Translations under genes and position numbers: made by a program
Notes under the pieces: generated by a model
What the model saw: only the letters and a program-made list of their open reading frames with translations
Database searches by the model: none
Told to the model about the DNA's origin: nothing
Assembly (NCBI GenBank): GCA_016650365.1
Contig: JAENVV010000188.1
Coordinates: forward strand, 1 to 53,708
Direction: 5' to 3'
DNA length: 53,708 nucleotides
Origin: Acidimicrobiia bacterium
GTDB lineage: Bacteria; Actinomycetota; Acidimicrobiia; Spongiisociales; JAENVV01
Part shown: positions 7,383 to 53,600 of the stretch, piece by piece
Layout of the letters: each line of letters opens with the position of its first letter
Position numbering within the stretch: position 1 is the stretch's first letter

Positions 7383-8797
7383 CAGAACTGGAAATATAGG
7401 AAGGGGACAACTTCTTGACCAGAGAACAAGACGATCGCCATGAAGAACGCACCGTAGACCAACCCTTGGGCGAAGGCGGGAAGCTGAAGCAGGCCTTCGT
7501 GGCGTCGGGTGCGGCGTTGCACGAGATCGACAAACAGGACCGCCAGACCGGCGGGAACCACCAGCACCAAACCGCCATAGGGGATGCCGTCGGCGTGGCG
7601 GGCTGTAGCGATACCCGATAGTACGTCCCATGCCTGTGGGAAGGAGTCAGCTCTGAAGAACACCCATGAGAGGGCAACCAGGTGGAACGTCAGGAGCACG
7701 GCAGGCACATCGCCCCATCGGGGCGGGTCCGTTTCCGAGCGCTCGGATCGGCTGCGGAATCGACGATGAATGACCAGATAGAGTCCATGCAAACCGCCCC
7801 ATACGACAAACGTCCATGCCGCGCCATGCCATAGGCCTCCGAGCAGCATGGTCACCATCAAGTTTCGCTGGGTGGCGACCGCCCCGTTGCGGCTTCCCCC
7901 GAGGGGTATGTAGAGATAGTCGCGTAACCAGGTCGAGAGTGAGATGTGCCAGGTGCGCCAGAACTGGGTGATGTTGCGTGACAAATACGGCTGGTTGAAG
8001 TTCACCATGAGGTCGAAACCAAGCAACCTGGCGGACCCCCTGGCGATGGACGAGTAGCCAGAAAAGTCGCCGTAGATCTGCAAACTGAACGCGTAAACGG
8101 CTACCAACAGCTGCATCCAACCTGCGGTTCCCGCCGTTTCAAACGTTTCTTGGACGAACGGCGCGAGCGCGTCGGCAATGACCACCTTCTTGAACAGCCC
8201 GATGAAGATGAGCAACAGTCCTGACGAAAGATCCGCCCCCGTGAGCTTGGGCCGATCGGCCAGGAACTGGGGCAACAGTCGTTTGGCCCGTTCAATCGGA
8301 CCGGCCACCAGTTGAGGAAAGAACGCCACAAAAACGGCAAAGGTCAACAGATTGTCGGTTGGCTCGAGCTCCCTGCGGTAGACGTCAATGGTGTACGACA
8401 TCGTCTGGAACGTGTAGAAACTGATTCCGACCAGCAGCACGATGTGCAGGGTCACAAAGTCCGCTTGTATCCCGAGGGTTTCGAGGAGTTCACGAGCCGA
8501 ATCGGCAAAGAACCCGAAGTACTTGAAGAATCCGAGGATTCCCAGGTTGACCGCCATCGAAACCTGTAGAAGTCGTTTCCTGACGACCGGGTCCTTCGAG
8601 GAGCCCATCCGTTTCCCGACGGCGAAATCCACCAGTGTCGAGATCCACAGCAATGACAGAAATCGCCAATCCCAGAAGGCATAGAAAACGTAGGAAGCAA
8701 CCAGGAGCAACAGGTTCTGTTCGCGGCGCCGCAGTAGACGGTAAAGACCAAACACCACCGCCAGTAGGACGGCGTACTGCATACTATTGAATGCCAT
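7382..8797 (-). CDS. MBOAT-family O-acyltransferase, AlgI-like (471 aa)
   Basis: Polytopic membrane protein of the MBOAT superfamily, with about ten hydrophobic segments starting at residues 10-20. The family signature runs from MVNFNQPYLSRNITQFWRTW and HISLSTWLRDYLYIPLGGSR to GLWHGAAWTFVVWGGLHG, including the conserved His324 and His337. AlgI-type members move acetyl groups across the membrane for an SGNH partner, which here is the next gene. An ATG start at 8797; a TAATGT hexamer sits 9 bases upstream (plus-strand 8807-8812), so even this first gene may have an almost leaderless transcript. It diverges from the beta-lactamase-like gene. Confidence 0.93.
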   Translation of the reverse strand: MAFNSMQYAVLLAVVFGLYRLLRRREQNLLLLVASYVFYAFWDWRFLSLLWISTLVDFAVGKRMGSSKDPVVRKRLLQVSMAVNLGILGFFKYFGFFADSARELLETLGIQADFVTLHIVLLVGISFYTFQTMSYTIDVYRRELEPTDNLLTFAVFVAFFPQLVAGPIERAKRLLPQFLADRPKLTGADLSSGLLLIFIGLFKKVVIADALAPFVQETFETAGTAGWMQLLVAVYAFSLQIYGDFSGYSSIARGSARLLGFDLMVNFNQPYLSRNITQFWRTWHISLSTWLRDYLYIPLGGSRNGAVATQRNLMVTMLLGGLWHGAAWTFVVWGGLHGLYLVIHRRFRSRSERSETDPPRWGDVPAVLLTFHLVALSWVFFRADSFPQAWDVLSGIATARHADGIPYGGLVLVVPAGLAVLFVDLVQRRTRRHEGLLQLPAFAQGLVYGAFFMAIVLFSGQEVVPFLYFQF

Positions 8798-33205: not shown

Positions 33206-33233
33206 TTGACACACTGTTATATATCGTTATTGT
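33206..33233 (+). promoter_or_regulatory. Promoter for the WXG100/EssC-like locus
   Basis: A perfect TTGACA at 33206-33211, a 16-base spacer that is very AT-rich (TTATATAT), and TATTGT at 33228-33233. The start would lie about 45 bases before the ATG at 33284, which has an AGGAG. It is the best sigma-70-type promoter visible in the window. Confidence 0.6.
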
Positions 33234-33283
33234 CACCAGAACAGCGACTTCCGAGCCGGAAGCGACCACCAGGAGATGTGTGT

Positions 33284-33586
33284 ATGGCACAGACGATCTA
33301 CAACCCTGAGTACATGGCATCCTTGCGCAGCCAGGTTGGCACCACCCGAAACACGATGGAACAAACGTTTCAGGATCTGCGATCCCTTTACGAGGGACAC
33401 GGCGGGCTGTGGCAAGACGCCGAGGCGAACGGACCGTGCGCCACTTTCGGGCAGTTGGTCGCCGACTTCCAGACGGTGATGACGACCTTTCTCGCCAATC
33501 TGGACACCACCTCGGGCAACGTCCAGGGATACGAAGAAGCCATGTTGAACGTCTCCCAGACCTTCAATTTCACCTCAGGCACCTAA
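33284..33586 (+). CDS. WXG100/ESAT-6-like protein (100 aa)
   Basis: Exactly 100 residues with the helix-turn-helix-hairpin pattern of WXG100 proteins. The turn is GGLWQDAEANG; Trp43 is present but the third position is Asp, not Gly. The helices on each side are amphipathic (MASLRSQVGTTRNTMEQTFQ, then TFGQLVADFQTVMTTFLANL). A C-terminal YxxxD/E secretion signal is not clear; VQGYEEAM is the nearest. Good SD AGGAG. Likely the substrate of the ATPase two genes downstream, by analogy with type VII secretion; first gene of a three-gene operon. Confidence 0.8.
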   Translation: MAQTIYNPEYMASLRSQVGTTRNTMEQTFQDLRSLYEGHGGLWQDAEANGPCATFGQLVADFQTVMTTFLANLDTTSGNVQGYEEAMLNVSQTFNFTSGT

Positions 33587-33622
33587 CGATGATCGACGGG
33601 GAGACCAGCGGTCTATCGAACG

Positions 33623-33868
33623 ATGCCAAACCGGGACACCCTCATACTGGCGAAGAACCGACTCGTGATGCTGCGCGGCGACCTGGCAGCGATCGAAGCC
33701 GATGTAGTCAGCTATCGCAATGTCGTTCCGAATGCGATCGACGCCCCGGTGACCGCCGGCCTCCAAAATGAGGCGTGGGCGTGGAAACTGGTGATCGAAC
33801 GGGCCTCCTCTGCGCTCTCGTACTGGATCGCGGACATCCAAACGGAGATCGATGAGCTTCAGCCATGA
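33623..33868 (+). CDS. Small helical protein of unknown family, between WXG100 and EssC-like genes (81 aa)
   Basis: Not recognised. Predicted mostly helical: a charged N-terminal helix (LILAKNRLVMLRGDLAAIEA), a short loop with Pro (NVVPNAIDAPV), and a second helix with three tryptophans (NEAWAWKLVIERASSALSYW). The stop TGA overlaps the next ATG (ATGA), which argues it is a real, coupled gene. The size and hairpin outline resemble a WXG100-like partner or a small chaperone, but neither the W-x-G turn nor a YxxxD tail is seen. Ribosome site is weak; ATG at 33623 is the only start in frame. Confidence 0.65.
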   Translation: MPNRDTLILAKNRLVMLRGDLAAIEADVVSYRNVVPNAIDAPVTAGLQNEAWAWKLVIERASSALSYWIADIQTEIDELQP

Positions 33869-36800
33869 CGGTGCGGACCAAATCGATTCCGGGAACCAGA
33901 GCGGTCATCTGTGTCCTCGACGACGGCCAGGCATCCGACCTGAATCTGACGTTCGGCCCGGCCTCCACGGTCGGTCACCTTGCACAGAACATTGCCGCCG
34001 TCTTATCTGGACAGTGGGGACCTCACCTCTGGATCGACGGGGTTCGCTTCGAGTCCGATCGGCTCCTGGCTGATTTACCGATCACCGACGGGATCACCGT
34101 CTCATCGACCGAACCAGCCTCCCATCCTCCTGCCATCGGCCAACTGGTGGCAGTGGCAGGCTCCGACGCAGGTCGCACCATCCGTCTGGCCGAGGGTCGT
34201 TACCCGCCAGGGTCCGTATTGAACCAACGCCTCGATGTGGCGGGTGAACGAATACGGATTGGAGACTCCGCCCCGATTCCCTTTGGGTCGTCGGTCACAG
34301 ACCCAACCACGGTGTGGCGGTACGAACCGATCGCCTCGCCAAGCGCGGCGACCCAGGGACCCTTCAACCGCCCGCCCCGCCGGCTTCCGCCCCCGTCTAC
34401 GGCCCCACCTGCCCTCCCCCGGCGAGAAGTGTCAGCCAGGGCGCAGACCGTGCTGCGCTGGACAATGATCGTCGGTCCGTTGGCTCTCGGGGCAGCGATG
34501 ACCGTTATCTTGAAACGACCAGCGTTTGCCATCTTTATGATGCTCGGGCCGGTCATGGCGACAATGAACTGGATCGAGTCACGACGAATAGGGCGAAAAA
34601 CGGATCGGTTAGCCGATGCCGCCTACCGGGCAGCCGTCTCGTCAACCAGCAAGAAACTTCGGACCTGGCTCGCCTCGACTCAGACGGCGGCTCTCAATCA
34701 GCATCCCGACCTTCCATCCGTGTTGAGTTGGCCCGCCCTTCGGCACCCGCGACTCTGGGAACGGCGACCCCACCACTGTGACTTCGGTCAGGTCATGGTG
34801 GGATACGCACCGTTCCACAACCGGCTAATCGGCGGCGAACCAGTCGACCCACGCTTCTTCGAACTGCTGGCCAGGGACCTCCAGGCCACCACGATGCCGA
34901 TCGTCGTCGATCTCAGCCCCGGTCGGGTCGTCGGAATCGTCGGCCCCGCCGAACAGGTCGGGGCCTCGGCAATGGCCATCATTGCCCAACTGGCAATTCA
35001 TCATGGCCCCGCCGATCTCGCCATCAGGGTGGCTTCAGCACCGTCCCGGGTTCCCCATTGGGCCTGGACAGCCCTCCTCCCCCACACTCAGATCGACCCG
35101 GACCAGACGGCGGTTGCGGTAACCCGGGAGGCGGTCGAAGCGCTACTCACCACGTCCGAGCCAACCTTGGTCGTGATCGATGGTTCGTATGAACCGATGC
35201 TCTCTGGACTCGTTCGGGAGTTCGCCGCGTCCGACGGGAGCATCCTCGTCACGGCCGGCAACGCTGACGAATTACCGGCCGCCGTTGATCAAATCGTCCG
35301 GGTCGCCAATCCCACCGTCACGGTCACCGATCTGGCAAGTGGATCGGTTGTCGCAGGGAGCGGACTATTCGTCCACAACGAAGTGTGCGTCGATGCCGCC
35401 CGGTCACTTCTAGGCATCACCGATCCTGAGTTGGCGACCAACGGAACGATTCCCCCGGCGGTCGCCCTGGTCGATCTCCTCGGACCAGACGGCATCGACG
35501 AAACCACCGTGATCAATCGGTGGCGTCAAAGCTCTGATCGGATCTCGGCTCCGATCGGCATTTCATCGACCGGGGTCATCGAGATCGACCTGGTCCGCGA
35601 CGGACCGCACGGCCTGCTCGCCGGCACGACCGGTGCGGGAAAGAGCGAACTTCTCCGTACCCTGGTCGCCTCTTTGGCCGCCAGTGTCGACCCGGAACGT
35701 TTGAATTTCGTTCTCATCGATTACAAGGGCGGGAGCGCGTTCGACGCCTGCGCCGACCTGCCCCATGTGGTCGGCGTCGTCACCGATCTTGACGATCAGC
35801 TGGCCGCCAGAGCCATGACCTGCCTGGAGGCCGAGCTCGGCTTTCGCGAACGGGTATTGCGTCAAGCCGGTGCCAGCGATCTGTCTGGCTATGAGGCCGC
35901 GGCAGATCAGCCACCCCTGCCTCGCCTCTACCTGGTCGTCGATGAGTTCGCGGCGATGGCAGGTGACCTACCGGAGTTCATCGATGCTCTCGTTGATATC
36001 GCTGCCCGAGGTAGATCGCTGGGAGTTCACTTGATGCTGGCCACCCAGCGCCCCGCCGGGGTGGTCAAGGATACGATTCGAGCCAATACGAATCTGCGGA
36101 TCGCACTGCGAGTCCAAACCGTCGCCGACTCGCGCGACGTGCTCGACGACGGCATCGCCGCCCTGATTCCCCGTTCTGTCCCCGGTCGGGGATATGTGCG
36201 ATTCGGGCCGTCGGAACTGACCGACTTCCAAACCGCTCTGGTAACTTGCTCATCGTCGGACCAGGCCCCTGCGAGGTTGGATCTGCACCCGATTGGATTG
36301 CCACGTCGTCCGGACGTCGGTGGCGAGGACGGCGCCGGCACCACCGATCTGGAGCGACTTGTGGCAGCCGTCCAGGCGGCGTCCCACCAAACCCAGATGA
36401 ATCCTCCCCGCACTCCCTGGCCACCAGCCCTCCCTGAGTCGCTCGCACTCTCCTCGCTCATGGCTGACTCAGGCGCGTTCGGACTGATCGACGAACCAGG
36501 GGAACAACGCCAACGACCCTTCATCTGGGAGCGCTCAAAGGGCCATCTAGCGCTCTACGGCATGCCGGGAACCGGTCCCGAGCGAGCCGCGGAGAGTGCC
36601 GTCGCGTCCGCCTGCTCCATACCAGAGGACCTCCAGGTATTCGTGCTGAGGTTCGGAAACCATCGATACGATTCACTCGCCAACATATCCGGGATCACAC
36701 CCGTCATCGAACCGGACGACTTCGAGCGACAGGCGCGCTTGATCCGGAATCTCGGGGCCGAACTCAGGCGGCGCAACAGATCAGCCTCCAGCCCCGAATC

Positions 36801-37797
36801 GGCCATCATTGTCGTCATTGACGATATCGGAGCCTGCCTAAGGAGCTTCGAACCGTTCCACCTGGCCCCGCTTCTTGAGACCCTCACCGAGATCCTCACG
36901 AGGGGCTACACCGCCAGGATTCACGTCATCGCCACCGCCTTCTCGGCGGGAGCCATCCGCACCAGGGCGGCGATTGGGTTTACCACGCGGCTGGCGTTCA
37001 GCTTCGCCGACCGTTCCCACCATGCCGGACTCGGCATCCGCGGCCGGTATCCGCAAACGCTCGGTTTTGGTCGCGGGATCGATGTGTCATCCGAGCTCAT
37101 GGTCCAGGTCGCAACCGACCACTCCGGATTGCAGTTTCCTGCCCGGGCGATCGTTTCCCCGATTCGAATCATGCCACGGATCGTCGAAGACCTCCCCACC
37201 TCCGCCCAGACCGTCACCCGCCCATGGCACATCCCCCTCGGGATCGGAGAGCGCCTTTTAACCGAGATCGGAGTTGATCTCGACGTCGGCGATCACCTGC
37301 TGGTCGCTGGACCGGTCCGTTCCGGCAAGAGCACCACCCTGGCCCTCATCGCCGGCCAGGTCTACTCGGCCAACCCGCAAGTTCATCTCGTGGCGGTGAC
37401 CCCCCGACGGTCCTCACTCGGCGATGCGGCACGATTTGAACATATCGTTGACGACCCGGCGGCTGTGCCAGAGTTGGGTCGGGCCCTGGTGTCAGCCAAC
37501 CGGTCGATCCTGATACTGGTTGACGATGCTGAACTCGTAGAAGGACTTGAAGACGTACTCAAAACGCGCCAGCCGAACGTAACAATGGTGGCAGCGATTC
37601 GCTCAACCGAAGCCACCCGTCTGTATGCACACTGGACTCGACGAATACGGGATTCGGGCAACGTGTTGCTCCTCGGAACGGACCACGGCGACCAGCTCGG
37701 TTTGAGCGTTCCCAGGTTCCTGACCAACCCACCCGCCGGACGTGGATTTCTCTGCACCCACGGCTCGGTGGAGGCAATCCAGGTGGCCAGAGGCTAG
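33865..37797 (+). CDS. FtsK/SpoIIIE-type type VII secretion ATPase, EssC/EccC-like (1310 aa)
   Basis: Cytoplasmic N-terminus of about 175 residues that looks like two small beta domains, possibly FHA or ubiquitin-like (TVGHLAQNIAAVLSG, then a GQLVAVAGSDAGRTIRLAEG repeat), then a Pro-rich hinge, two membrane helices at about 196-238 and three ATPase modules. Module 1 is intact: Walker A GTTGAGKS at 587-594 and LYLVVDEFAAM about residues 688-698. Module 2 is degenerate: its P-loop reads GMPGTGPE at 899-906, with no lysine. Module 3 is intact: GPVRSGKS at 1149-1156 and ILILVDDAEL. This single-chain layout with an N-terminal FHA-like region is closer to Firmicutes EssC than to the split mycobacterial EccCa/EccCb. 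No eccB, eccD, eccE, mycP, esaA or essB is in the window. Confidence 0.88.
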   Translation: MTVRTKSIPGTRAVICVLDDGQASDLNLTFGPASTVGHLAQNIAAVLSGQWGPHLWIDGVRFESDRLLADLPITDGITVSSTEPASHPPAIGQLVAVAGSDAGRTIRLAEGRYPPGSVLNQRLDVAGERIRIGDSAPIPFGSSVTDPTTVWRYEPIASPSAATQGPFNRPPRRLPPPSTAPPALPRREVSARAQTVLRWTMIVGPLALGAAMTVILKRPAFAIFMMLGPVMATMNWIESRRIGRKTDRLADAAYRAAVSSTSKKLRTWLASTQTAALNQHPDLPSVLSWPALRHPRLWERRPHHCDFGQVMVGYAPFHNRLIGGEPVDPRFFELLARDLQATTMPIVVDLSPGRVVGIVGPAEQVGASAMAIIAQLAIHHGPADLAIRVASAPSRVPHWAWTALLPHTQIDPDQTAVAVTREAVEALLTTSEPTLVVIDGSYEPMLSGLVREFAASDGSILVTAGNADELPAAVDQIVRVANPTVTVTDLASGSVVAGSGLFVHNEVCVDAARSLLGITDPELATNGTIPPAVALVDLLGPDGIDETTVINRWRQSSDRISAPIGISSTGVIEIDLVRDGPHGLLAGTTGAGKSELLRTLVASLAASVDPERLNFVLIDYKGGSAFDACADLPHVVGVVTDLDDQLAARAMTCLEAELGFRERVLRQAGASDLSGYEAAADQPPLPRLYLVVDEFAAMAGDLPEFIDALVDIAARGRSLGVHLMLATQRPAGVVKDTIRANTNLRIALRVQTVADSRDVLDDGIAALIPRSVPGRGYVRFGPSELTDFQTALVTCSSSDQAPARLDLHPIGLPRRPDVGGEDGAGTTDLERLVAAVQAASHQTQMNPPRTPWPPALPESLALSSLMADSGAFGLIDEPGEQRQRPFIWERSKGHLALYGMPGTGPERAAESAVASACSIPEDLQVFVLRFGNHRYDSLANISGITPVIEPDDFERQARLIRNLGAELRRRNRSASSPESAIIVVIDDIGACLRSFEPFHLAPLLETLTEILTRGYTARIHVIATAFSAGAIRTRAAIGFTTRLAFSFADRSHHAGLGIRGRYPQTLGFGRGIDVSSELMVQVATDHSGLQFPARAIVSPIRIMPRIVEDLPTSAQTVTRPWHIPLGIGERLLTEIGVDLDVGDHLLVAGPVRSGKSTTLALIAGQVYSANPQVHLVAVTPRRSSLGDAARFEHIVDDPAAVPELGRALVSANRSILILVDDAELVEGLEDVLKTRQPNVTMVAAIRSTEATRLYAHWTRRIRDSGNVLLLGTDHGDQLGLSVPRFLTNPPAGRGFLCTHGSVEAIQVARG

Positions 37798-37982: not shown

Positions 37983-38465
37983 TCAGATCTGGCTCCTTTG
38001 GCCCACCCATTCGACGATCCGACCCATGGCCTCGCCTATATCGGCCGTAGATTCAGCGTCTGAAATCCGAATGTGACGATCGCCGTCGGTTCCATCGAAG
38101 TCCAATCCGGGTGTTACAGCCACGGAGATGTCACGCAGCCACCGTGCCGACAGTTCGGTGCTGGTCAGGTTCAGTGATTCAATATTGACCCAGGCGTGAA
38201 AAGCCCCGTCCGCGGGGGCGACGTCGGTAAGACCGGCTTCGGCCAGTCCGGCAAGCACGATCTGGCGATTCCGAGCGTATCGTCTGACGTTGTCCTCCAA
38301 CTCGTCGGTTGCATCGAACGCGGCGATGGCAGCATGCTGGGAGAGAACCGGTGGACAGATAAACAGATTCTGGGCGAGTCGGGTGATCGGTTCAACCATT
38401 TCGGGAGGCATGACCATCCATCCCAGTCGCCAGACGCACCCAGTTCCAACCTTTGAAAAACCCAC
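37983..38465 (-). pseudogene. C-terminal fragment of a class I/II aminotransferase
   Basis: 160 residues that match only the last part of a PLP aminotransferase. It begins at about the PLP lysine (FSK at residues 3-5), then VWRLGWMVMPPEMVEPI, the helical ITRLAQNLFICPPVLSQHAA segment, DGAFHAWVNIE, SVAVTPGLDFD and the substrate-carboxylate arginine in RHIRIS. A whole enzyme has about 380-400 residues, so some 230 N-terminal residues are missing. The six residues after FSK (VGTGCV) differ from the usual pattern of Tyr-Trp-x-Met-Thr-Gly. Its 5' end lies 17 bases from the 3' end of the giant surface-protein gene, in a different frame. It is best explained as a remnant cut by an insertion or recombination event; a mis-assembly is the alternative. 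Confidence 0.75.
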
Positions 38466-38482: not shown

Positions 38483-38640
38483 CTACAGCAGGTCTTCGTC
38501 GGGTTCGCGTCCAACCGCCAGACTCCGTGGAACGGGCCGGTCTTTCGACATTCCCACAAGTACCAGCCCGCCGAGGATGAGCAGAAGTGCCAGCACCAGC
38601 TGGGCCATCGAGTTGTAGCCGGTGTACGGAATACCCGGTT
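38483..38640 (-). other. Cell-wall sorting signal of the giant protein
   Basis: Gly-rich linker, then IPYTG at 38618-38632, four residues, a hydrophobic helix (MAQLVLALLLILGGLVLVGM) and the charged tail SKDRPVPRSLAVGREPDEDLL. It fits the x-P-x-T-G logic of sortase substrates; the tail is unusually long and ends acidic. Confidence 0.75.
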
Positions 38641-41600
38641 CCCCGCCTGACCCGCTCGGCCCCGGTGGAAGAAGCACCACTACGGAAACGGTGACCACCG
38701 TACAGGCCCCATCTGTATCGCAGACTCTGACCACAAATGTGTAGGTTCCGGCGCCCTTGGTCGTTCCGGTGAACGTTCCGTCAGGGTTCATGGTCACGCC
38801 TGGCGGTAAGGCCCCTCCGATGAGAGTAAATCGGACTTCGGAACCTTCCGGGTCGGTGAAGGTGAGAGACGGGACGGTCTGACCAACGGTAACCGTGATG
38901 ATGGTTTCACCTTCATTGACGGGTGGGTCGTTGACGTCGGTGACGGTGACCGTGACCACGGCGGTAGCGCACTCACCGGTCGGGGCGATCCCGGTGGTCG
39001 GTATGGACGTGTCTTCGCAGATCGTATAGGTGAACGAATCCACCCCGGCAAAGTCGGGATCGGGTACGTAGGTGATGGTGCCGTCCGAGTTTATCGTGAC
39101 GGACCCGTTGGGAGGTTGGGTCACGGTCGTCACAATCAGCGTGTGACCTTCCGGGTCACCGTCATTGTTGAGCACGACGATGGTTACCGGCTGATCTTCG
39201 AGCGTCACGGCGCTGTCGTCGGTGGCGATGGGCGGTAGGTTCCCTCCCAGTCCGAAGTCTGCGTCGAGATAGATTTGACCTGCGGAGAGACTCACTGAAA
39301 CGGGGAATGCTCCGCCCAGACCAGGCGGGAGGGTCGTCGGGTCAAGCGCCACCACATACGATCCGGCGACAAGTCCAGATACGAGGTAGTGGCCGGCAGC
39401 ATTGGTTACCTGAACGTAATCCACATCGTCAGTCGTACCTGCAAGGCCGTCCGGGCCTGCCCACGTCACAATCACCCCGACACCCGGTATACCTGGCTCC
39501 CCGGCGCCCTGGATACCATCGCCATCAAGATCGCTGAACACGGTGTCCCCGAGGGCTCCGGTGCCGGTGTAGCCGAAGGGCCCAACTATCACCGCTTGAT
39601 TCGGACTCACGGTCACTGCCGTCGCCCCATCCACGATGGCGTCCGGGTCGTCGGTTTGGATCACTCCCGGAGGCAACGTACCGGCGTCAATCGCGATCGT
39701 GTATGCGCCTGGCATCAAATAGGGAACCGTAAGATTACCGGCCGCATCGGTGGATACGAGGTAGGTGACATCGTCGGCGTTACCTGGAACACCATCCGGC
39801 CCTGCCCAGACCACTGTTACGTCCACGCCTCCGATACCCGGGTCACCGGCATCGGCGGCTCCATCGGCATCGATATCAAAGTACACCCGATTGGTGAGGG
39901 ACCCTTGGCCGGCGACTCCGAAGTCCTCCCCAACCACAGCCTGTCCAGGCAGCAAGGTGACCAGGTCGATACCGTCGGGAGTGAGGTCCGGATCGAATGA
40001 CCATGCGGCACCCGTCGGTAGAGACACGACGATCCGGTAGTCCCCGGACGGCACGTTCACGAACTGATAGAAACCGCCCGCGTCGGTGGCCGTCGGATAG
40101 GACACGTCGTCACCGTTCCCCACAATTGCGTCCGGACCGGCCCAGGTTGCTACGACAATGATCCCGGACAGCGGGGGCTCGGAGCCACCGTCGGCGCCAT
40201 CACCGTTGACGTCGAGCATGACTCGGCCCGCAATGGAACCGACGGCGTAGATGCCGAAGTCGACCATATCGACGGCGTCTCCACTCATCAATGCGAGGCT
40301 GGTTGGATTATTGGCGGTCGTGACCGATGTCCCAACCGGCTCGACCACGGCGACGTCATAGTTGCCCGGCGGGAGACTGAACGAGTAGCCGCCTGCGGGG
40401 TCGCTGGTTGTGGTGAAGACGGCGCCACTCGACGTATTCGTTGCAGTAACGACGACGCCACTGAAACCAGGTTCGCCTACGTCGCGTACGCCATCCCCGT
40501 TGAGATCGATATACACGAGGTCGCCGACTGAGGCAGGAACGTAAACACCTACGTCGATATCAACCTTGGATCCGGGCAACACTGACACCGGACCGCTCAA
40601 ACCGGTCACGGGATCGAGGTCGGAATCAATCGAATCGTCGCCGCCGACGTCCATTGGACTCACGTAGGAGGCGATCACTTCAACCGCGTAGACACCGTCC
40701 GCGATACCGATGAAGGAGTAATCACCGTTGCCGTCGGTAGTCGTCGAGGCGACGACCGTGTCGGGATTGCCATTGTTATCGGTGTCAAGCCACAGATTGA
40801 CGACAACGCCAGGGCGACCCGACTCGCCCACATCCTGGAGCCCGTCGCCGTCGACATCATCCCAGACCATTCCCGCGATGTCGCCAGCCGGCGCGTACCC
40901 GATGTAAGACGCTGTGACCGGGACGGTATCGTCAACGTTGACCGTCTGGCCGTCCGTTCCGGTCGTTTCGTTGCCGTAGCCGACCGGGAAGTCGACATCT
41001 GTCTCGTCGACGTTGACCGAATAGTTGCCAACCGGAAGGGTGGCCGAATAGAGGCCCGAACTGTCGGTGACAACGGTGACCGGTGGTCCGCTTGAGCCTG
41101 TCAGAACAACGTCAACATTCGAGAGAGGGGCATCGCCGTCGGCCGGGTTGAACACGCCGTCGCCGTTTTCATCGGTGAAGACAAAGCCACTGAGGTCCCC
41201 GGTCCGGATGACGGTTACCGAAGCGCTGTCCGTGCCCGTCACTGCGCCGCCGATCGGATCGGTCGCTGAGGCGTTCACCGTGTTCGTGAAGTCGGCCGTG
41301 ACCCCGAAGACATCGCAGGTGTACGACTGGACCTCTCCGATGGCCAACGTCGCGTACGTACCGCCGCAAGCCGGGTACGCCAGATCGGTGATGGTCACGG
41401 TGTCTAGTGCCGTCTCCCCCGTGTTGATGACGGTGATCGTGAAGGTGGCCGTTCCGGACTCGAGCACCGTCGGGGTATCGGCGGCCTTGAAGACGGAGAG
41501 TTCAGGAACCAGGACGTCCACCACTTCGCTGGCAGAGTCGACCACGTCGTTGCCGGCCTCATCTTGGGCTGTCACGCTGATGGTGTTGACAACCGGATCG

Positions 41601-44600
41601 CCGGTAGTCGCATCAACCCCGGCCAGCGCGCACGTATAGGTCTGGGTGGCGCCGACCGCCAGAGCGGCGAAGGCGTTGTCACAAGCCGGCAATGACGGAT
41701 CCACTACCGAGACGTTGGCCAGATCAGCCGGACCGTTGTTTTGGACAGTGATCGTGTAGGTGATGTCTCCGCTGTCAATGACTGTGCTGAAGTCCGCAAC
41801 CTTGCCGATGGTGATGGAGGCAGGCAGCACGGTGATCGACGCTGAGTCGGACGAGGTGGCCGGGTTGCCATTGCCATCGAGGGCTGACGCATCCACGGTG
41901 TTTGTGAAGCCGACCAGGACGTCGGCGACGGTGCACACATATGACGTGCTGGCGTTCGGCGCCAGTGGCCCGACGGTGTTGTCACAAGCCGGGTAGCCGG
42001 CATCAACCACATCGACCGTGGTGAGGGTGACGTCACCTGTGTTCGTGACCGTGATTGTGAACGTGGCGTCCTGACCGATGCCGATAGCTGTTTGGGAGGC
42101 GACCTTTTCCACCAGGACACCTGGCAACAGAACCGTGACGTCAGCCGAGTCGTTCCCACCGTCAACCGGATCGAGATTGGGGTCAAGACCCGACGCCACG
42201 ATCGTGTTCGTGAAGTCGCCATTCACGGTTACGACGCAGTTGTAGCTGACCGATTCGCCGACGAGCAGCGAAGCAATCGTGGAGTCGCAGGAAGGCACGG
42301 AAGCGTCGACCAGGCTCACGTCGGTCAGATCTACGTCACCGGTGTTCGTGACCTCGATGACAAACGTGGCATCGTCGCCGAGCGGCACGGATTGCACATC
42401 TGGCGACTTTGTCACGGCAAGACCGGGAGCGATCGCATCGACGTCGGCGGTATCACTGTCGATCCACGGATTCCCGAGCGGGTCATTGGCGGTGACCGAC
42501 GCCGTATTCGTGAAGTCGGCGCTGACCGTCGCGGTACACGAATACGAAGTCGTTGCGCCGATGGCAAGCGAACTGACGATCCGGCCACAGCTGGCCGCGA
42601 GCGGATCGGAGACGACGAGGTCAGCCAGGACGGTCGCACCGGTGTTGGTCAGAGTGATTGTGAAGGTCGCCGCCGAACCCACCGGCACCTGCTGGAAATC
42701 CGGTGTCTTCTGGATCTCAATTCCAGGAACCAGCACGACCACGTCGGCGCCATCCGCGTCGGTCACTGCGTTCCCGAGGGGATCGGTCGAAGTCACACTC
42801 GCGGTGGCGGTGACGTCGGCCGTCACGTTGTCCAGCGTGCACGTGTAGGTGACGGTCTCACCGACCGCCAGGGTTGCGATCGTGACTGCGCAGTTCGGAG
42901 CGTTCGGGTCGGTCACGATCACATTGACCAGATCGACGTCACCGTTGTTGGTCACTTCGATGGTGAAACTGGCGGTCGCATCATAAATAACGGTCTGGGC
43001 GTCCGGTGTATTCGAGATGGTGATCGACGGGTCGATCGCGTCGACCGAAGCATCATCGGAATCGCTCACGGGGTTGCCAAGCGCGTCGGTCCCGGACACC
43101 GAGGCAATGTTCGTGAAGTCTGCCGAGACTGTCGTTGAACAGGTATAGCTGGTGTTGTCTCCGACCACCAGATCGAACGGCCCTGAATCACAAGCCGGGG
43201 TGAGTGGGTCGTTGACCAGGAGGCCGGTCAGGTCCTGGTCACCGGTGTTGGTCACCAAAATGGTGAAGGTAGCCAAATCTCCGACGACCACGATCTGCTC
43301 TGGGTCAGGAGTCTTTTGGATCTCAACACCGGGGAACACGACATCGACATCCGCAGAGTCGCTGACACTGATGGTGCCTCCGAGCGGGTTGTCCGCAGTG
43401 GCGGCGGCGTTGTTGGTGAAATCGCCAGTGACGTTCAACAGCGTACAGGTATAGGTCACCGAGGACCCGGCTGTCAGGAGTCCAATGGGATTATCACAGT
43501 CGGGTGCCAGCGGGTCGGAAACGGCCACGTTGGGCAGGTCTATGTCGCCCGTATTGGTCACGGTGATATCGAAGGTGGCCGTCTCACCAGACAGTAACGT
43601 CTGCAGGTTCGGGGTCTTCAAGATCTCCAACCCTGGATCGACGAGATCTACGTCCGCAACGTCGCTGTCGGACCAGACTCCGCCGAGGGCATCGGTGCCG
43701 GTCACGTTGGCCGTGTTGGTGACATCAGCCGCCACCGGGTTCGAGCTACATGAGTAAGAGGTCGATTCGCCGATGAACAACGAGCCGACGGACGCATCGC
43801 ACGCTGGAGTCAACGGGTCGGTGACCGCCACGTTGAACAAATCGGTCTGGCCCGTATTGGTAACCGTGATGGTGAAGTCGACGGTGCCACCCAGTCCGAC
43901 GATCTGGTAGTCCGGGGATTTTTGGATCTCGACAGCCGGAACCAACACGGTCGTGTCCGCTGTGTCGGTGGCGGTGACGGTGCCTCCAGACGGTTCGTCG
44001 GCGACGACATTGACCGTGTTTGTGAAACTGGCGACAACGTTGGACAGCGTACAAGAGTACGAAACCGTTTCACCGATCAAGAGCGTGGCGATGGTTGAGT
44101 CACAGGCCGGCGCATTCGGGTCCGACACGACAATCGTGGTGAGGTCGGCGTCTCCGTCGTTGGTCACCTCTACGGTGAAGCTGGCCGTTCCGTTATAGGT
44201 GACGGTCTGGACGTCCGGTGTCTTGGAAATCGAGATGGCAGGCAGGATGACGTCTACCTCGGCCACATCGGAATCGGTAACGGGATTACCGACCGCGTCT
44301 TCAGCCGTGACCGCCGCCGTGTTCGTAAAGTCACCGGGAACCGCCGCCAGAACACATGCATAGGAAACGGATGAACCGGCTGTCAACGTTCCGATGGCGT
44401 TGTCGCAGGCCGGGGCAAGCGGATCCGACACGACAACATTGAACAGGTCAATGGTTCCACCATTGGTCACTGTGATCCCGAAGGTCGCCGGGTCGCCGGC
44501 GAGGATCGTCTGAAGGTTCGGGGTCTTCTGGATGTCGATTCTGCCGGATACCACGGTAACGGCAGCTGAATCCATTGACGTGACGGCCTGGCCAGAGAGA

Positions 44601-47600
44601 TCATCGGCGGAAGCGCTGACCGTGTTGGTGAAGCCGGCAGTTACGGGCGACAGAACACACAAGTAGCTCTGCGTTTCACCAACCGCCAGCGTTGCGAACG
44701 TCGCATCACAAGCCGGGGCGAGAGGATCGGAGATGACGACGTTACTCAGGGCGCTGTCTCCAGTGTTCTCGATGGCGATAGTGAACGTAGCGTCACCGTT
44801 TACGATCGCTTCCTGGGAAGCCGGGCTCTTCGTTACGAGAATCCCCGGGGCAATGACATCGAGGTCTGCCGAGTCGCCGGCAGTCACCGTTCCACCGGAG
44901 GGTTCATCGGCCACGACTCCGATGACATTGGTGAAGTCTGCTGTGGCCGTCATGGTGCACGTATACATCTCGGTTACCCCCACCGCCAGGGAGGGGAAGG
45001 TGGCATCACAGGTTGCGGTCAGCGGGTCGTTCACCACGACATTCGTCAGACCTATGTCACCGGTGTTGGCGATGTCAATCGTGAATGTGATCGTGTCACC
45101 TGCCCTGGCGAAGGTCGGATCAGGACCCTTTTGAATGTCGATGGCAGGCTGGATCATGTCGACCGAAGCGGTATCAGTGTCGCTCACCGGGTTGCCTGCG
45201 GTGTCAGTCGCTTCGACGTTCGCCTGGTTGATGTAGTCGCCCGTGACCGGCGATTGAGCACAGGAGTACGTCTCGACTCCACCGACCGGAATAAGTGAGA
45301 AGAACGTATCGCAACCGGGGGCGAACAGATCCGTGACGCTGACGTTGGTCAGATCGAGAGCCCCCGTGTTCGTGACCGTGAAGTTGAAGGTTGCCGTGCC
45401 ACCAAGTACTACGTATTGAACAGCGGGATCCTTGGTGATCGAGACACCCGGTACCAAAACTGTTACGTCGGCAGTGTCCGATCCGAAGAGCACGGTTCCG
45501 AGTGGGTCTTCGCCGGTGACGTCGACGGTGTTGGTGAGGTCGGCCGTCACGCCACTGGTCGTGCAGATGGCATCCTGGCTCGCACCTATTGCCAGGCTGG
45601 CGATCGACGTGAGGTCGCACACCGCCTGGCCGTCAGTGATCGTGATATTCGTGAGAGCCGTTTCACCGGTGTTCGTGATGGTTACGGTGAAGACGGCGTC
45701 ACTGTTGAGAGCCACGTTTTGGGTCGCCGGATTCTTGACCACGGAGAACGCCGGCGTGAGGACCACCACGTCCGCCGTGTCGGTCGAGGTGACCTCGGTC
45801 AAGAGTGGATCGTCGGCGGTCACGGTGACCGAGTTCGTGAAGTTGGCCGTGACATTTCCCGTCGTACAGCTCACATCCACGGATTCACCGATAGCCAAGT
45901 TGGCGATCGCGGTGCTCGCACAACTCGCCAGTGGATCATCGATGACGACGTTCGTCAGATCGGTTGCGCCATCATTGGCAACTGAGATCGTGAAACTTGC
46001 CGTGCTACCCGACACGACCTCCTGGGTGGCCGGGCTCTTGGTCACCAGAATGCTGGGGTTCAGTACCACCACATCAGCACTATCCGATTCGTTCAGCGCG
46101 CCCGCAGGCGAATCGGCCGTGACGGTTACTGAGTTCGTGAAGTCCGCTGTCACGCCTGAAGTGGTGCAGTTGACAACCGACTGTGCCCCGGCCGCCAACG
46201 AGGTGACCGCGGTCGGCGTACACATTGCGAGCGGATCGTCGACCGCCAGGTTCGTCAGGGTCGTTCCGCCCGTGTTGGTGATAGTGATCGTAAACACCGC
46301 GTCACCGCCGGATACAACCGTTTGGGTGGCCGGATCTTTGACAACCGTCATCGCAGATGGGGGCACCCAACCAAAATCAGCCGCAGTGACCGAGTCACCG
46401 GACAATACGATCACCGCGAGCGGATCGGTGGTGGTCTCCATGTATCCAGCCGGGACGGTCGATCCGTCAACGGCCACCGTGTAGCTGCCTGGTGCCACGT
46501 TCGTGAACAGGTAATTGCCGCTGGCATCGGTCACCGCCGTGTCGGTCGTCGTGCCGACGCCGTCGATGAGGTTGACCGTAACCGTCGGCAGCCCCGGCTC
46601 ACCTGGATCGAGGACGCCGTCCCCATCAAGGTCGGAGAACACCGTATCGCCGATGGTCGCCGGTACGACGAGTCCGGCATCAAGATCTTGTGTGCCGATT
46701 CCGTCGGTGATTCCGATGACGCCAGTTCGTCCGGTGATCTGGGCGGCGTCCGAATCGAGCGTGACGTCACCTCCCTGATTCGGAGCCGAGAACACCGATC
46801 CACCAGGTGCGACAAACTCGACGACGTAGGCGCCGGGAGCCACCGCAAACCCGTACAGGCCGCCGCCGGATGTGGCGGTGCTTGATATTGGGGTGATCAG
46901 GTCGGCGGCGTCATAGAGGTTCACGACGACACCGGCGACGCCCGGTTCTCCGACATCCTGGATGCCGTCCCCGTTGAGGTCGTTCCAGACGCGGTCACCC
47001 AGGCTCGCCGGCAGATACCCCGCATCGGGTCCATCGATGACGTCACCCGAGTTCACCGAGAAGATCGGTGATACACCCGTGGAAGCAACGTCGGAGTCAA
47101 TCGAGTCGTCGGCGCCACTGTCCTGAGCTGTGAATGTGAACCCGACACCGTCGACGATGACCACATAGTCACCAGGAGCCACATTGGAGAAGGTGTAGGT
47201 GCCGGTCGCGTCCGTCGCCACCGTGGCAGTCTGCGTATCTGCGATCCCGTTCTCCGTGGTGTCGCTCCACAGCTCAACCGGGACTGCCGGCACGAATGGC
47301 TCGCCGTTTTGGATGCCGTTTGCATCGAGGTCGCTCCAGACCTGACCGGTCACGGTGGCGGGTTCGTAATATCCGAAGTCGGCTCCGCGGTACGCTTCGG
47401 CTGTCGCGAGACCGTAGGTCTGGGGATCGCCAGTCGTCGGCACCGGAGCCGTCAACCCGGTGGCTGTCGCGTCAGCATCGATGGTGTATTCACCGGCCGG
47501 CAACAGGGCAAGGTTGTACAAGCCCCCTCCGTTGGTGGTGGTCGTATAGACGACGTCGTCGCTGTTACCGGCGACTGCGTCAGGGCCAGCCCAGGTAGCG

Positions 47601-50600
47601 AAGACCGGTACGCCGTCAAGTGGTGTGTCGATCCCGGCGGAATAGACGCCGTCCCCGTCAACATCCTCGAAAACAAGATCTCCGATCGATCCTGAGCCGG
47701 TATACCCAAAGTCGGTCGTGGTGTTGACCTCGCCGGAGGTAACGGTGACGGTTGCCGTGTCATCGGCGTTGCCGTCAGGGTCCTGGGTTATGACCATCCC
47801 GGCGGGAACCGTGGCCGTGTCAACGGTGACGCCGTAGGTGCCGGGATCTACCGTGAAGGAGTAGGTACCGCTGGCATCGGTGACAGCCGTGATCGTCGAG
47901 GTGTCCGGTTTGGTAAGGGTCATCGTGACTCCGACCAGCGGAATGTCGGTTCCAGATGTATAGATCCCGTCCCCATCAACATCGTGGTAAACAAGATCCG
48001 ATATGACAGTGGCTTCCACGAGACCGGCGTCGACCGTTGCGTCTGCCTGGCCGGAGGTGAGGACGATCGCCACCGTGCCGATCTGAATGTCGATGGCCGG
48101 CACAGGGTCGGAATCGACGGTGTCGTCTCCTCCGGCGTTGGCGGTCGTATACCGGAAGGCCGTCGCAGCGGTCGAGGTGTCGAACACGACCCTATATGAC
48201 CCCGGCGCAGCAGATAGGACATATGCGCCATTCCCATCCGTCACCGTCGAGTCGACGATGACATCATCCAGCGTTCCGAACAGGCCGTCGAGACCGGCGC
48301 CAGAAACCAGCGTCACCGTCACTCCACCAACCCCGGCGGCGCCGTCATCTTGGTGGCCGTTTCCATTGATGTCCTCCCAGACGAAGTCCGAAACGCTTGC
48401 ATTGGCGAAGAGTCCGGCGTCGACCGTGTCATCGACGAGTCCTGAGGTCAGCGTGGTCGGGGTGATGGCAATGCCGGGATCGGCCGTCACGACCGCGTCC
48501 GAATCGACCGTGTCGTCACCACCCTGATTGGTCGGTGAGAACGACGTCACCGCCGGCGCAAAGAACACGACGGTGTAGTCGCCCGGCAAGGCCGTCAACG
48601 AATAGGCACCGAGCGCATCGGTGGTGGTTGTATCCACGACGACGTCGTCTGCAGTTCCGAAGAGACTGTCCGTCCCTGGATCCGACACCAGGTTCACCGT
48701 GACTCCGTCAAGACCGGGTTCACCGACATCCTGGATTCCGTCGCCGTTGGTATCGGTCCAGACGAAATCGGAGACCGTAGCCAGAGCGGCATAGCCGAAA
48801 TCGGCCGCGTTGAAGTCCTGGCCGGCAGCCAGATTCACCGTCAACGGATCGTTGACGGTAGTCAACGTGTAGCCGGCGGGTTCCGCAATGACATCGACCG
48901 AATACTGACCGGCGGGGAGTAACGTGAAGTCGTAGGCACCGATCGGGCCGGTGGTTTGGGTGGGATAGGTGACGTCGTCACCGGTGCCCGCGGCGCCGTC
49001 AGGTCCGACCCAGGTGAGTTCGACCGTCGCACCTGGCAGTCCGGTCGTTTCGGCCACTCCGAGCGTGCCGTCGCCGTTGGAATCTTCGAGAACCGCGTCG
49101 CCGATCGAACCGGTGCCGGTGTACCCGAAGTCAACGTCGGCGTTGTCGGTACCGGAGATTGCGGTAAGCGCCGTCGCGGAATCAAGGACCGCATCCAGGT
49201 CATAGGTAGCTGTCATTCCGGCCGGCAGCGTTCCAGTTGTAACGGCGACGACATAGTCACCGGGAACCACTGTGAACGAATACATGCCATTGACGTCCGT
49301 GATTGCGGTCTCAAGAACCGTCGTACCGTCACTTGCGAAGAGCGTCACGGTGATATTGGCGAGGCCCGGCTCGCCGGCGTCGAAGCCTCCATCGCCATCG
49401 ATGTCATACCAGACAAGATCTGAAATGATGATGGGCGTAAACAGTCCGGCATCGAGGGTCGCATCGACCTCGCCAGAAGCAAGGGTGGTAGCCGCGATGG
49501 CCACCGTCGGATCGGCGGTTACGAGGGCGTCCGAGTCCAAGAGGTCGCTGCCCTGATCGGCGAGCGTGAAGACCATGCCGCCGGGCGCCAGAAACACGAC
49601 CGTATAACTGCCGGGAGACGCACTGAGCGAATACGCCCCGTTCAGGTCGGTGGTGTCGGTAGTGACCACGACGTCATCGAGTGTGCCGAACAGACCGTCA
49701 ACACCCGGTCCCGAAACCAGGTTGACGATCGCACCGGCCAGACCAGGCTCCCCGCCGTCCTGGACGCCGTTGCCGTTGAGGTCGTCCCAGACGAAGTCCG
49801 ACACGGTGGCACCAAGATACGCGCCTGCGTCGAGCGTGTCGTCGGACGAACCGTCAAGCACCACGAAAATTGCCGTTTCTCCGGTGACCGGATCGGCATC
49901 GGAATCGACCGCGTCATCGGCTCCCTGATTGGCCGGTGAACTGACCCACGAACCAACGGCTGTCGAATAGTCGAACTCGATGAGGTAGGTACCGGGAGCG
50001 GCCGCCAGCTCGTAGATGCCATTTACATCTGTAAGATCGGTGGCAATGACCGTGTCTGGCGTCCCGTCGCCCGAGGTATCCGCCCAGAGGTTGACCGTAA
50101 CGTTCTGAACACCAGCCTCGCCTCCGTCCTGGATCCCATCTGCATTGAGGTCATTCCAAACGAAGTCCGAAAGGAGTGCAGGTAGCACGCCCGCATCAAC
50201 CGAGTCATCAACCTGACTTGACGCAACCGTGACGGTGCCGGTCGTGCCCGTTGCGTCCACATCCGAGTCAAGGGCGTCGTTCGCCCCGACATTGGCCGCG
50301 GTAAAGGTGAAGCCACTTCCGTCGACGACCAGAACATACCTGCCGGGGTCGGTCGTAAATCCGTAGAAACCATCGGCGTCGGTGATGGTTGAGTTCAGTG
50401 CAGGGCCGTCCGGATTCCCATCCTGATCAACGTCTGCGAACAGGCTCACGGTGATAACGGCGAGACCAGGCTCTGCGACATCGTGAATCCCATCGGCATC
50501 AAGGTCCACAAACACGAGATCCGAGATCGTGGCAAGGCGATACAGCAAGCCATCGAAATCGAAGGTGGCGCCCGAAGCCGCCGCGAAGATCGACGTCGCA

Positions 50601-53600
50601 CCGGTCAAGTCGATGTCGGAATCAATGGTGTCGGCGGCGGCATCTTGGGGAGAAACGAGGTACCCGGTCGTGTCGATAACGACTTGATAGTCCCCAGGCG
50701 GAACCACAAATGTGTAGTCGCCATTGATGTCGGTGGTCGTGTTGGCAACTACGTTTCCTAGACCATCGAGCAACGTCACCCCGATCCCTTGCAGTGGCAC
50801 ATCGGCAACGTCCTGCGTTCCCTCGGCGAAGGCGTCTTCGAACACCGAACCCGCAATGGTCACGCCCTCATAAGCGCCCGCATCCACCGTCGCGTTGACT
50901 TCACCTGACGCAACGGTGATGGCCGGGGCGCTACCCGACGGATCGCCGGCAGATCCCGCATCTGAATCCAGAGTGTCGTCGCCGGCGTCGGGGGCGGTGA
51001 GAACGTACGAGCCGACAGCCGTCGACAGGTCGAAGGTGACGGTGTAGGTGCCGGGCGGAACGTCGAACCCGTACAGTCCACCACCGGCGGTCGTATCACT
51101 CACACTTACGACATTGCCGGCACCGTCGACTCCGTTGAGCGTCACCGCGACGCCATCCAGCCCGACCTCGGTGCCACCCTGGAGGCCATCGCCATCGGCA
51201 TCGACCCAGACAAAGTCGGAAATGGTTGCAGGCTGATAGAAGCCGGCGTCAACAATGATGATTGGGTCGGAAGAATCGGTAACCGTAATCGTCCCGGTTC
51301 GGCCAGTGAGCTGGGATGCGTCCGAGTCAGTGCCGTCGTCGGCTCCGACGTTCGACTCGGTGTACTCGTAGCCGGCAGGTGCCACAAACTCGACGACGTA
51401 ATTGCCTGGAGCAGCCGCCAACGAGTAGGACCCACCTGCGGCTGAGGTGGTGGTGGCTACGAGCGCGTCGGTGGCCGCGTCGCGAAGGTTGACCTCGACG
51501 CCCCCCAGTGGCAATTCGCCAGAGTCCTGCAAACCGTTGCCGTTACCGTCCTCCCAGACGTAGTCTCCGATCGTGATCGGCAAGACGCCCGCATCGACCG
51601 ACAGGTCATCGGCTCCAGAGACGACTGTCACGGCGACGGTGCCGGTGGCACTCACATCGGAGTCGGTAGCGTCACCGCCGCTGTCCTGGAGCGTGAACGT
51701 CCATCCGGTTCCATCAACGCCAAGGGTGTAGGTGCCCGGTGCCAGGTTTGCGAATCCATAAGCGCCGCCGGCGTCCGTCACGTCTGACAAGCTGACGGCA
51801 TTTCCGAGACCATCCGTGCCCACCAGTGTGACGGTTACACCGGCCAGTCCAGGTTCACCGCTGTCCTGGATGCCATCGCCGTCGAGATCGACCCAGACGA
51901 AATCCCCAAGGTCAGCCGGGTAGTAGTAGCCCGAATCAGCAGTGAGGTAATTGCTCCCCGACGTCACGAATATCGCGGTGAACGTGGTCGGCGTTGTGGC
52001 CGTTGATCCGACCGGATTGCTGACCACGACGTCATATAAACCCGGCGCAAGACTGTCGAAGAGATACAGCCCGTCGACATCCGTCGTGGTGACCAGGGTG
52101 GCGTCGTCGCCGGTGCCAACAACTCCGTCGGGTCCGTAGTAGGTGGCCGTCACGGTTACGCTGGCGATCCCGGAGGCCCCGTCGTCCTGGACGCCATTCC
52201 CGTTGAGGTCTTCCCAAACGAAATCGCCGATGGAGCCAGCCACATACATGCCGGCGTCAAGGTCTGTGATGGAATCGCCCGAAATGTACGTGACTATGCC
52301 GCCTTCCCCGGTCACTGGATCGGCGTCCGAGTCAAGTGCATCGTCGCCGCCGAGATTGGCTCCAGTGATCGTGTAGCCGGAAGGCGCCACGAAGCGAATC
52401 TCGTAGGCTCCAGGAATCAGATTACCGAACGAGTAGAAGCCCCCGCCCGATGTGGTGGTCGAAGCAACTACGCCGCCCGCGCCATCAAGAAGTTCTACAG
52501 CTACGCCATCAAGCCCCGGTTCGGTTCCATCCTGAATGCCATCACCGTCAGAATCGACCCATACTAAGTCGGATATCGTGATGGGCACGTAAGCCCCTGC
52601 GTCCACCGTGTCGCTGGCCGCCCCCGCCAATACGGTGATGGTGACCCGGCTGGTCGCCGGATCGACATCGGAGTCGACCGTGTCGTCCGACAGCTCGTCT
52701 TGGAGGGTGAAGACGAACGAGGAACCAGCCGTGTTGGTCGTCAGATCAAACTCAAGCACAAAGTTATTCGGCGACAGCCCCACGAACGAGTAGGCACCGG
52801 TGAGGTCGGTCGTGGTTGTCGCAACCAAGGACGTTCCGTCCGCGTCGTAGAGATAGACCGTGGCGCCCGCAATGCCCGGTTCGCCACCGTCTTGGATTCC
52901 GTCGCCGTTGAGGTCGTCCCACACAAAGTCGCCGACCGCGCCTGCAAACGCATAGCCAGTCGTATCGACGGTTTCGGTTCCGGCTGTGGCGGTCACCGTC
53001 GTGGGGTCGGTCCCTCCGACCAACGCACCTCCGGCCGGAAGGGTCGCGTCAACCACGTCAACCGTTGTCGATCCAACCTCAACCAGCAGGCTGGCCTCCC
53101 CGTTGGCATCCGTCGGAATCGTTTGGGATGCGCCGTTTACATCGGTGAACGTGACGTCAACCCCGACCAGGGGCGAGTCGACCCCGAATGTATAGAGGCC
53201 GTCCCCGTCGACATCCTCGTAGACGACCTCCGTGACCGTGCCAGACGGTATGACGGTTATCGAGTGGGAGTTGCTAACCGGGCCAACGTCGTCGTTGTCG
53301 AGATCAACCCCGTTGACTTCTGCTGTGTTCACCAGCGGATCCGGGTCCGTGGCCCCGATGGTGTACGGCATCGAGTACGTCCAGGTCTCACCCTGGTCGA
53401 GGAACCCGTCCGTGTTGGTGTCTCCGCCGACGTACACCGGCACCCCAAACGGGTCCGCCACGTCAACTGAACCGATCGGTGATCCGTCGCCGCCTGTGGT
53501 GTCGTTGGTGATGGTGAATGTGTAAGTGACCGTTTCGCCGACGAGTGCGGTGGCGGGTCCTGATTTGGCGATGGCTAGGCCCGGTGCGAAATCAATATCG

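What the first reader, a model, noticed from the sequence alone, without database searches (positions are those of the whole stretch)
33206..37797. Minimal type VII secretion-like locus: WXG100, unknown 81-residue protein, EssC-like ATPase
Only three coupled genes behind the strongest promoter in the window. The ATPase has the single-chain layout of Firmicutes EssC in an actinobacterial context, and the other core components (EccB/D/E/MycP or EsaA/EssA/EssB) are missing from this region. It may be a stripped-down exporter or one whose membrane partners are encoded elsewhere.
Basis: partly seen in the sequence, partly recalled or inferred. Interest (0 to 1): 0.65.

Follow-up and report, generated by a model that had tools for sequence, protein, structure and literature searches.

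The report
Split type VII secretion variant, VirB8-like partner
Three genes in this bacterium encode the motor and two small proteins of a protein-export machine whose likely membrane parts, found elsewhere in the same genome, resemble a piece of DNA-conjugation machines rather than the usual type VII parts, so it looks like an undescribed version of that exporter.

Summary
33206-37797 carries a promoter-like site, a WXG100-like gene, an 81-codon gene and a 1310-codon FtsK-type ATPase whose start overlaps the previous stop. The ATPase is a genuine T7SS motor: sequence and fold match YukB/EssC and EccC. It lies outside T7SSa EccC, in a broad actinobacterial EssC-like group.

The locus is not stripped down. 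In about 20 genomes of the same order the trio faces a divergent pair: a one-TM protein with tandem NTF2 domains (TcpC/VirB8-like) and a membrane LysM protein. That pair is present in the window's own genome, on another contig, at the site where the trio sits in relatives. The trio was moved next to lysA; its likely membrane partners stayed behind. EccB, EccD, mycosin and YukC/EssB were sought genome-wide and not found. TcpC-like genes occur in 21 of 27 motor-bearing genomes against 5 of 92 others.

Best reading: a T7SS variant, limited as far as sampled to one order, that uses a conjugation-type VirB8-like subunit as its envelope part. It is unlike the published T7SSa-T7SSj. Secretion, substrates and contact between the parts are inferred.

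The parts
33206..33233 (+). promoter-like site TTGACA-16-TATTGT upstream of the trio
   Evidence: only 10/12 site in the window, though total site count is at chance level; TTGAmA and TTATATAT/TATT block conserved in 5 genomes of the genus
33271..33276 (+). AGGAGA, likely ribosome-binding site of the WXG100-like gene
   Evidence: read from sequence
33284..33586 (+). WXG100-like small protein P0003 (100 aa), W-x-G motif lost
   Evidence: sub-threshold WXG100; profile match to W-x-G family of relatives; dN/dS 0.13; only copy in each genome of the genus
33623..33868 (+). 81-residue partner P0001; reads as a helical hairpin; conserved YxxxD (YWIAD) at residue 67; sits where relatives encode a second small protein with a W-x-G motif
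   Evidence: homology to the W-x-G partner not detectable by profile; no family hit
33865..37797 (+). EccC/EssC-family ATPase P0002 (1310 aa)
33895..34104 (+). P0002 residues 11-80: ubiquitin-like fold in the model
   Evidence: strand-strand-helix-strand-strand order; fold assigned by reading, no separate fold search of this domain
34132..34329 (+). P0002 residues 90-155: small beta domain (FHA position, FHA identity not shown)
34459..34578 (+). P0002 residues 199-238: two-helix membrane hairpin as in EccC
34762..35394 (+). P0002 NBD0/DUF domain
   Evidence: YukB 9qks, ESX-3 and ESX-5 EccC, EccC5 DUF crystal 8rin
35521..36234 (+). P0002 NBD1 with intact Walker A (GTTGAGKS) and Walker B (VVDE)
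36517..37134 (+). P0002 NBD2, Walker A lysine lost (GMPGTGPE), also lost across the clade
37237..37764 (+). P0002 NBD3, Walker A GPVRSGKST intact in the window (K or R in relatives)

Best explanation
The trio is the cytoplasmic/motor half of a T7SS variant found in one actinobacterial order, several of whose members are deposited as Acidimicrobiia. P0002 is the hexamer-forming EccC/EssC-type motor, with a ubiquitin-like domain fused to its N-terminus in place of a separate EsaB/YukD. P0003 and P0001 are the WXG100-type pair that engages the motor and is probably exported. The membrane half is a TcpC/VirB8-like protein (one TM, two NTF2 domains outside) and a membrane LysM protein, encoded on another contig of this genome (G000:C149:6690-8291). 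The VirB8-like protein probably multimerises above the motor as a conduit through the cell wall, and LysM ties the assembly to peptidoglycan. Shown: the genes, homologies, folds, gene linkage, relocation, and absence of the ESX/Ess membrane parts that were sought. Inferred: contact between the two halves, hexamerisation, export, and what is exported.
For: Motor identity: TIGR03928 EssC 419 bits and TIGR03924 EccCa 338 bits, both below their equivalog cut-offs; Foldseek top hits YukB 9qks_H (E 1e-14) and ESX-5/ESX-3 EccC. Linkage: [LysM, TcpC-like] divergent from [WXG100, small, EccC] in families f2, f4, f5 and f7, in at least two unrelated genomic contexts. TcpC assignment: Pfam TcpC above cut-off in one relative (31 vs 27 bits); own copy found with the relatives' model at 3.5e-35; AF2 gives one TM plus two NTF2 units. 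Co-occurrence 21/27 vs 5/92 genomes; at least two of the five exceptions lie in conjugative elements. Relocation: the own TcpC-LysM pair sits between GlmU-Prs and DUF3107-WhiB as in relatives, minus the trio; in G004 both halves are still about 7 kb apart. Two motor-less relatives examined keep LysM at that site but lack TcpC and the trio there. EspG-type chaperone in 7 of 119 genomes, all with both motor and TcpC. Selection: dN/dS EccC 0.22, WXG 0.13, TcpC 0.25, LysM 0.31. Precedent: Gram-positive VirB8-like trimers are proposed to bridge the coupling ATPase and the cell-wall conduit (PMC11753425); mycobacterial conjugative plasmids carry TcpC together with a T7SS (PMC5452490).
Against: The own-genome TcpC-like protein has no direct Pfam hit and its fold search gives only weak NTF2 hits (E 0.02-0.07). 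LysM occurs without the motor in many relatives, so it is not dedicated. Six motor-bearing genomes lack TcpC. In the window's genome the halves are on different contigs, distance unknown. The co-occurrence test is not corrected for kinship. No experiment on secretion exists. P0001 is not detectably related to the W-x-G partner of relatives and evolves fast (dN/dS 0.74). The 96-row tree leaves the window genus unresolved; the pruned tree places it with TcpC loci, and holding genus and TcpC loci together is not rejected (p-AU 0.10).
Confidence: 0.62

Rival explanations
1. T7SS-like exporter in which the EccC motor and WXG100 pair act on their own or with unknown partners; the TcpC-LysM pair is a syntenic neighbour with a separate envelope function.
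For: LysM protein is retained in motor-less relatives; six motor-bearing genomes lack TcpC; in the window's genome the pairs are unlinked.
Against: TcpC tracks the motor (21/27 vs 5/92), sits next to it in different genomic contexts, and is missing together with the trio from the conserved site in motor-less relatives.
Confidence: 0.2
2. A T7SSd- or T7SSb-type system (kinase/FHA or EssB/EsaA type) whose other genes lie elsewhere.
For: Motor scores best with EssC; other actinobacterial loci of this motor group carry a Ser/Thr kinase and a large envelope-like protein, as published for T7SSd (PMC11217815).
Against: No kinase or large envelope gene beside the motor in this order's TcpC loci; YukC absent in 40 relatives with a ringing B. 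subtilis control.
Confidence: 0.07
3. A DNA-translocation remnant: FtsK-like motor plus VirB8-like protein derived from a conjugative element.
For: TcpC is a conjugation protein and true conjugative TcpC loci occur in the same order.
Against: Motor has the T7SS NBD0/DUF and three NBDs rather than a coupling-protein layout; WXG100-type genes are next to it; no VirB4 or relaxase recognised beside it.
Confidence: 0.04
4. A relocated, decaying locus in this genus.
For: P0001 dN/dS 0.74; trio and partners separated; W-x-G lost; EccC and LysM apparently frameshifted in G002, a 68%-complete MAG.
Against: EccC and WXG100 intact with dN/dS 0.22 and 0.13 between G000 and G001; NBD1 Walker motifs kept; promoter block conserved.
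Confidence: 0.07

Closest known systems
T7SSa / ESX (EccB, EccC, EccD, EccE, MycP)
   Same: EccC-type motor with two-TM hairpin, NBD0 and three NBDs; paired small proteins; an EspG-like chaperone in some relatives
   Different: EccB and EccD not found and no mycosin above cut-off; motor outside the T7SSa branch; ubiquitin-like domain modelled on the motor instead of on EccD
T7SSb (EssC/YukB, EssA, EssB, EsaA, EsaB)
   Same: motor closest by profile to EssC; N-terminal domains before the TM hairpin
   Different: no YukC/EssB found; N-terminus is a ubiquitin-like unit plus small beta domain rather than two shown FHA domains; two small partners
T7SSd (Olsenella, Bifidobacterium; PMC11217815)
   Same: actinobacterial, non-T7SSa motor, few components
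   Different: T7SSd has a kinase (TsdD), TsdH and giant TsdI; none beside this motor; no TcpC or LysM component is named for T7SSa-j in the sections read
TcpC/VirB8-like subunits of Gram-positive conjugative T4SS (pCW3 TcpC, OrfG, TraM)
   Same: one TM and two NTF2 domains; works with an FtsK-like coupling ATPase
   Different: chromosomal, linked to WXG100 genes and EccC; no VirB4 or relaxase recognised beside it
Mycobacterial conjugative plasmids with T4SS + T7SS (PMC5452490)
   Same: TcpC and a T7SS on one replicon
   Different: there a full T7SSa (ESX-P) plus VirB4/VirD4/relaxase; here TcpC appears in place of the usual T7SS membrane parts

Membership tests
T7SS (broad: EccC/EssC motor + WXG100 protein) | FtsK/EccC-type ATPase with TM hairpin, NBD0 and three NBDs | tested here: met
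T7SS (broad: EccC/EssC motor + WXG100 protein) | WXG100-family small protein encoded beside the motor | tested here: inconclusive
   window copy sub-threshold and without W-x-G; profile match to relatives that carry it (probability 35%)
T7SS (broad: EccC/EssC motor + WXG100 protein) | export of the WXG100 protein | not testable with these tools
   needs an experiment
T7SSa / ESX | EccB | tested here: not met
   positive control
T7SSa / ESX | EccD | tested here: not met
   no true positive control in that call
T7SSa / ESX | MycP mycosin | tested here: not met
   only subtilases below the curated cut-off (best in own genome 157 vs 279 bits); no control over the cut-off in that call
T7SSa / ESX | motor within the T7SSa EccC branch | tested here: not met
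   (three and two T7SSa references)
T7SSb | EssB/YukC | tested here: not met
   B. subtilis control rings
T7SSb | EsaA, EssA | not tested
T7SSb | tandem FHA domains on the motor N-terminus | tested here: inconclusive
   ubiquitin-like and small beta domain; FHA identity not shown
T7SSd | kinase TsdD beside the motor | tested here: not met
   none among the neighbours of this order's TcpC loci
TcpC / VirB8-like family (partner gene) | Pfam PF12642 above cut-off | tested here: inconclusive
   met in one relative (31 vs 27 bits); own-genome copy no direct hit but matched by relatives' model
TcpC / VirB8-like family (partner gene) | one TM followed by two NTF2 domains | tested here: met
   matches to solved structures weak

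The most novel reading that the evidence does not exclude
A T7SS subtype beyond the published a-j, in which a conjugation-type VirB8/TcpC protein plus a peptidoglycan-binding membrane protein stands in for the EccB/D/E or EssA/EssB/EsaA membrane complex, with the ubiquitin-like component fused to the motor and, in one genus, the motor half relocated away from the membrane half.
Probability: 0.5. Interest if true: 0.78.

Novelty: new variant of a known kind. Interest (0 to 1): 0.62.

Why it matters
T7SS subtypes share little beyond the motor and WXG100 proteins; the membrane parts differ, and how substrates cross the cell wall is unsettled. A subtype whose membrane part resembles a conjugation VirB8 subunit would tie T7SS to Gram-positive T4SS at the level of a conduit protein, and would give a compact system (about five genes) in which to ask which parts are truly needed for export.

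Tried and rejected
Pfam WXG100 over the own genome found nothing above threshold because P0003 is divergent. EccB, EccD, MycP and YukC searches found none. Profile comparison of P0001 with the W-x-G partner family of relatives gave nothing, so the pairing rests on position and length. The downstream genes DUF3107, WhiB, GDPD, YqeY, LigD and Ku were considered and set aside as flanking synteny, because they stay in place in motor-less relatives. The giant SdrD protein downstream was considered as a TsdI-like envelope part and rejected: opposite strand, beyond a tRNA, not conserved in G001. Paper searches found no description of a TcpC-bearing chromosomal T7SS in the held library; PMC4173767 was not held.

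Full report
What is there. P0003 starts 7 bases after AGGAGA; P0001 ends inside the ATGA that starts P0002. The promoter-like site at 33206 is the best consensus match in the window, but promoter-like sites as a whole are no commoner than in shuffled sequence; the block is conserved in all five genomes of the genus.

The motor. P0002 matches EssC (TIGR03928, 419 bits) and EccCa (338 bits), both below equivalog cut-offs. The model of its first 575 residues shows a ubiquitin-like unit (11-80), a small beta domain (90-155), a membrane hairpin and NBD0. Foldseek's best hits are B. subtilis YukB and ESX-5/ESX-3 EccC. NBD1 has intact Walker motifs, NBD2 has lost the Walker A lysine throughout the clade, NBD3 keeps a K or R. 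A pattern-based scan of one genome per species, capped at 80 loci, finds this motor type in many Actinomycetota. In a 96-row tree it separates from three T7SSa EccCs with full support; the window genus is a four-row clade of unresolved place. In a pruned tree it falls with TcpC-linked loci, and holding the genus with all TcpC loci is not rejected, p-AU 0.10.

The small proteins. P0003 is a divergent WXG100 protein without the motif. In most relatives both small genes carry W-x-G. P0001 keeps the position, roughly the length and a conserved YxxxD, but no detectable sequence kinship. Calling it the WXG100-type partner is inference.

The membrane partners. In relatives the trio faces a divergent pair: a TcpC-like protein (Pfam TcpC above cut-off in one relative) and a LysM membrane protein. 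Profiles of these find one adjacent pair in the window's own genome, G000:C149:6690-7436 and 7446-8291, and pairs in all four genus mates. The own TcpC-like protein is modelled as one TM and two NTF2 units; its solved-structure matches include NTF2-like proteins, among them TraM of pIP501, at weak E-values.

The trio moved. In relatives of families f4 and f5 the gene order is GlmU, Prs, TcpC, LysM, trio, DUF3107. In the own genome the same site reads GlmU, Prs, TcpC, LysM, DUF3107, WhiB, and the trio is next to lysA instead. In G004 the trio lies beside lysA with the pair about 7 kb away, an intermediate arrangement. Two motor-less relatives examined keep LysM at the site and lack TcpC and the trio there. 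The linkage also holds in family f2, in other surroundings, with an EspG-like gene and an alpha/beta-hydrolase gene; the EspG gene occurs in 7 of 119 genomes, all with motor and TcpC, and not in the own genome.

Co-occurrence and absence. TcpC-like genes occur in 21 of 27 motor-bearing genomes against 5 of 92 others (Fisher p 1e-13; not corrected for kinship; genome sets read at E below about 1e-30 and 1e-20). G034 and G052 among the five carry TcpC in conjugative elements. EccB was absent in 119 relatives and strongly found in four other genomes of the phylum as a control. EccD was absent without a true control. The best own-genome subtilase scores 157 bits against the mycosin cut-off of 279. 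YukC was absent in 40 genomes with B. subtilis ringing. The own genome is 97.8% complete in 341 contigs.

How it probably works. By analogy with ESX and YukB the motor forms a hexamer at the membrane and is engaged by the small pair. By analogy with Gram-positive T4SS, where VirB8-like trimers are proposed to bridge the coupling ATPase to a cell-wall conduit (PMC11753425), the TcpC-like protein would carry cargo through the wall and LysM would anchor it. TcpC and T7SS meet on mycobacterial conjugative plasmids (PMC5452490), and a pIP501 T4SS protein resembles EssB (PMC13037476), so exchange between the two machine types has precedent. Every step after gene linkage is inference.

Novelty. Garrett et al. 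2024 (PMC11217815) describe T7SSc to T7SSj beside T7SSa and T7SSb, with kinases, phosphatases, FHA, vWA and Ig proteins; in the sections read no TcpC or LysM component is named, and only T7SSa and T7SSd are placed in Actinomycetota. This is a new variant of a known kind; whether it merits a subtype letter depends on showing that TcpC works with the motor.

Noticed in passing
window 38483-53708 (-): Giant repetitive surface protein (over 5,000 codons, SdrD_B, DUF11 and DUF7507 repeats) ending in an IPYTG-type sorting-like tail; runs off the contig end.
   Followed up: partly
window 37983-38465 (-): Short ORF that reads like the C-terminal part of a class I aminotransferase, possibly truncated by the neighbouring giant gene.
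   Followed up: no
L064 and L130 (G002): EccC and LysM genes are split by apparent frameshifts in this 68%-complete MAG; sequencing error or decay not distinguished.
   Followed up: no
L045, L047, L050, L052, L053 (family f2): Gene after EccC encodes a long N-terminal helical-looking region plus an Abhydrolase_8 domain; candidate exported substrate of this system.
   Followed up: partly
L046:12877-15099: 740-residue protein without Pfam hit, inserted between the TcpC-like and LysM genes; candidate substrate.
   Followed up: partly
L060 (G115): Different EccC locus with a WXG100-like protein and a neighbour that reads as a ubiquitin-like domain fused to a ParA/MinD-like ATPase.
   Followed up: no
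L156, L159, L162, L165, L171, L198, L208: Arthrobacter-group and Microbacteriaceae motor loci, most with a kinase gene, a ~930-1000 aa protein and a ~445 aa protein; may be T7SSd-like and widen its reported range.
   Followed up: no
G009, G034, G052 (L134, L135, L138): Conjugative-element-like loci with TcpC in the same order; G009 has several copies.
   Followed up: partly
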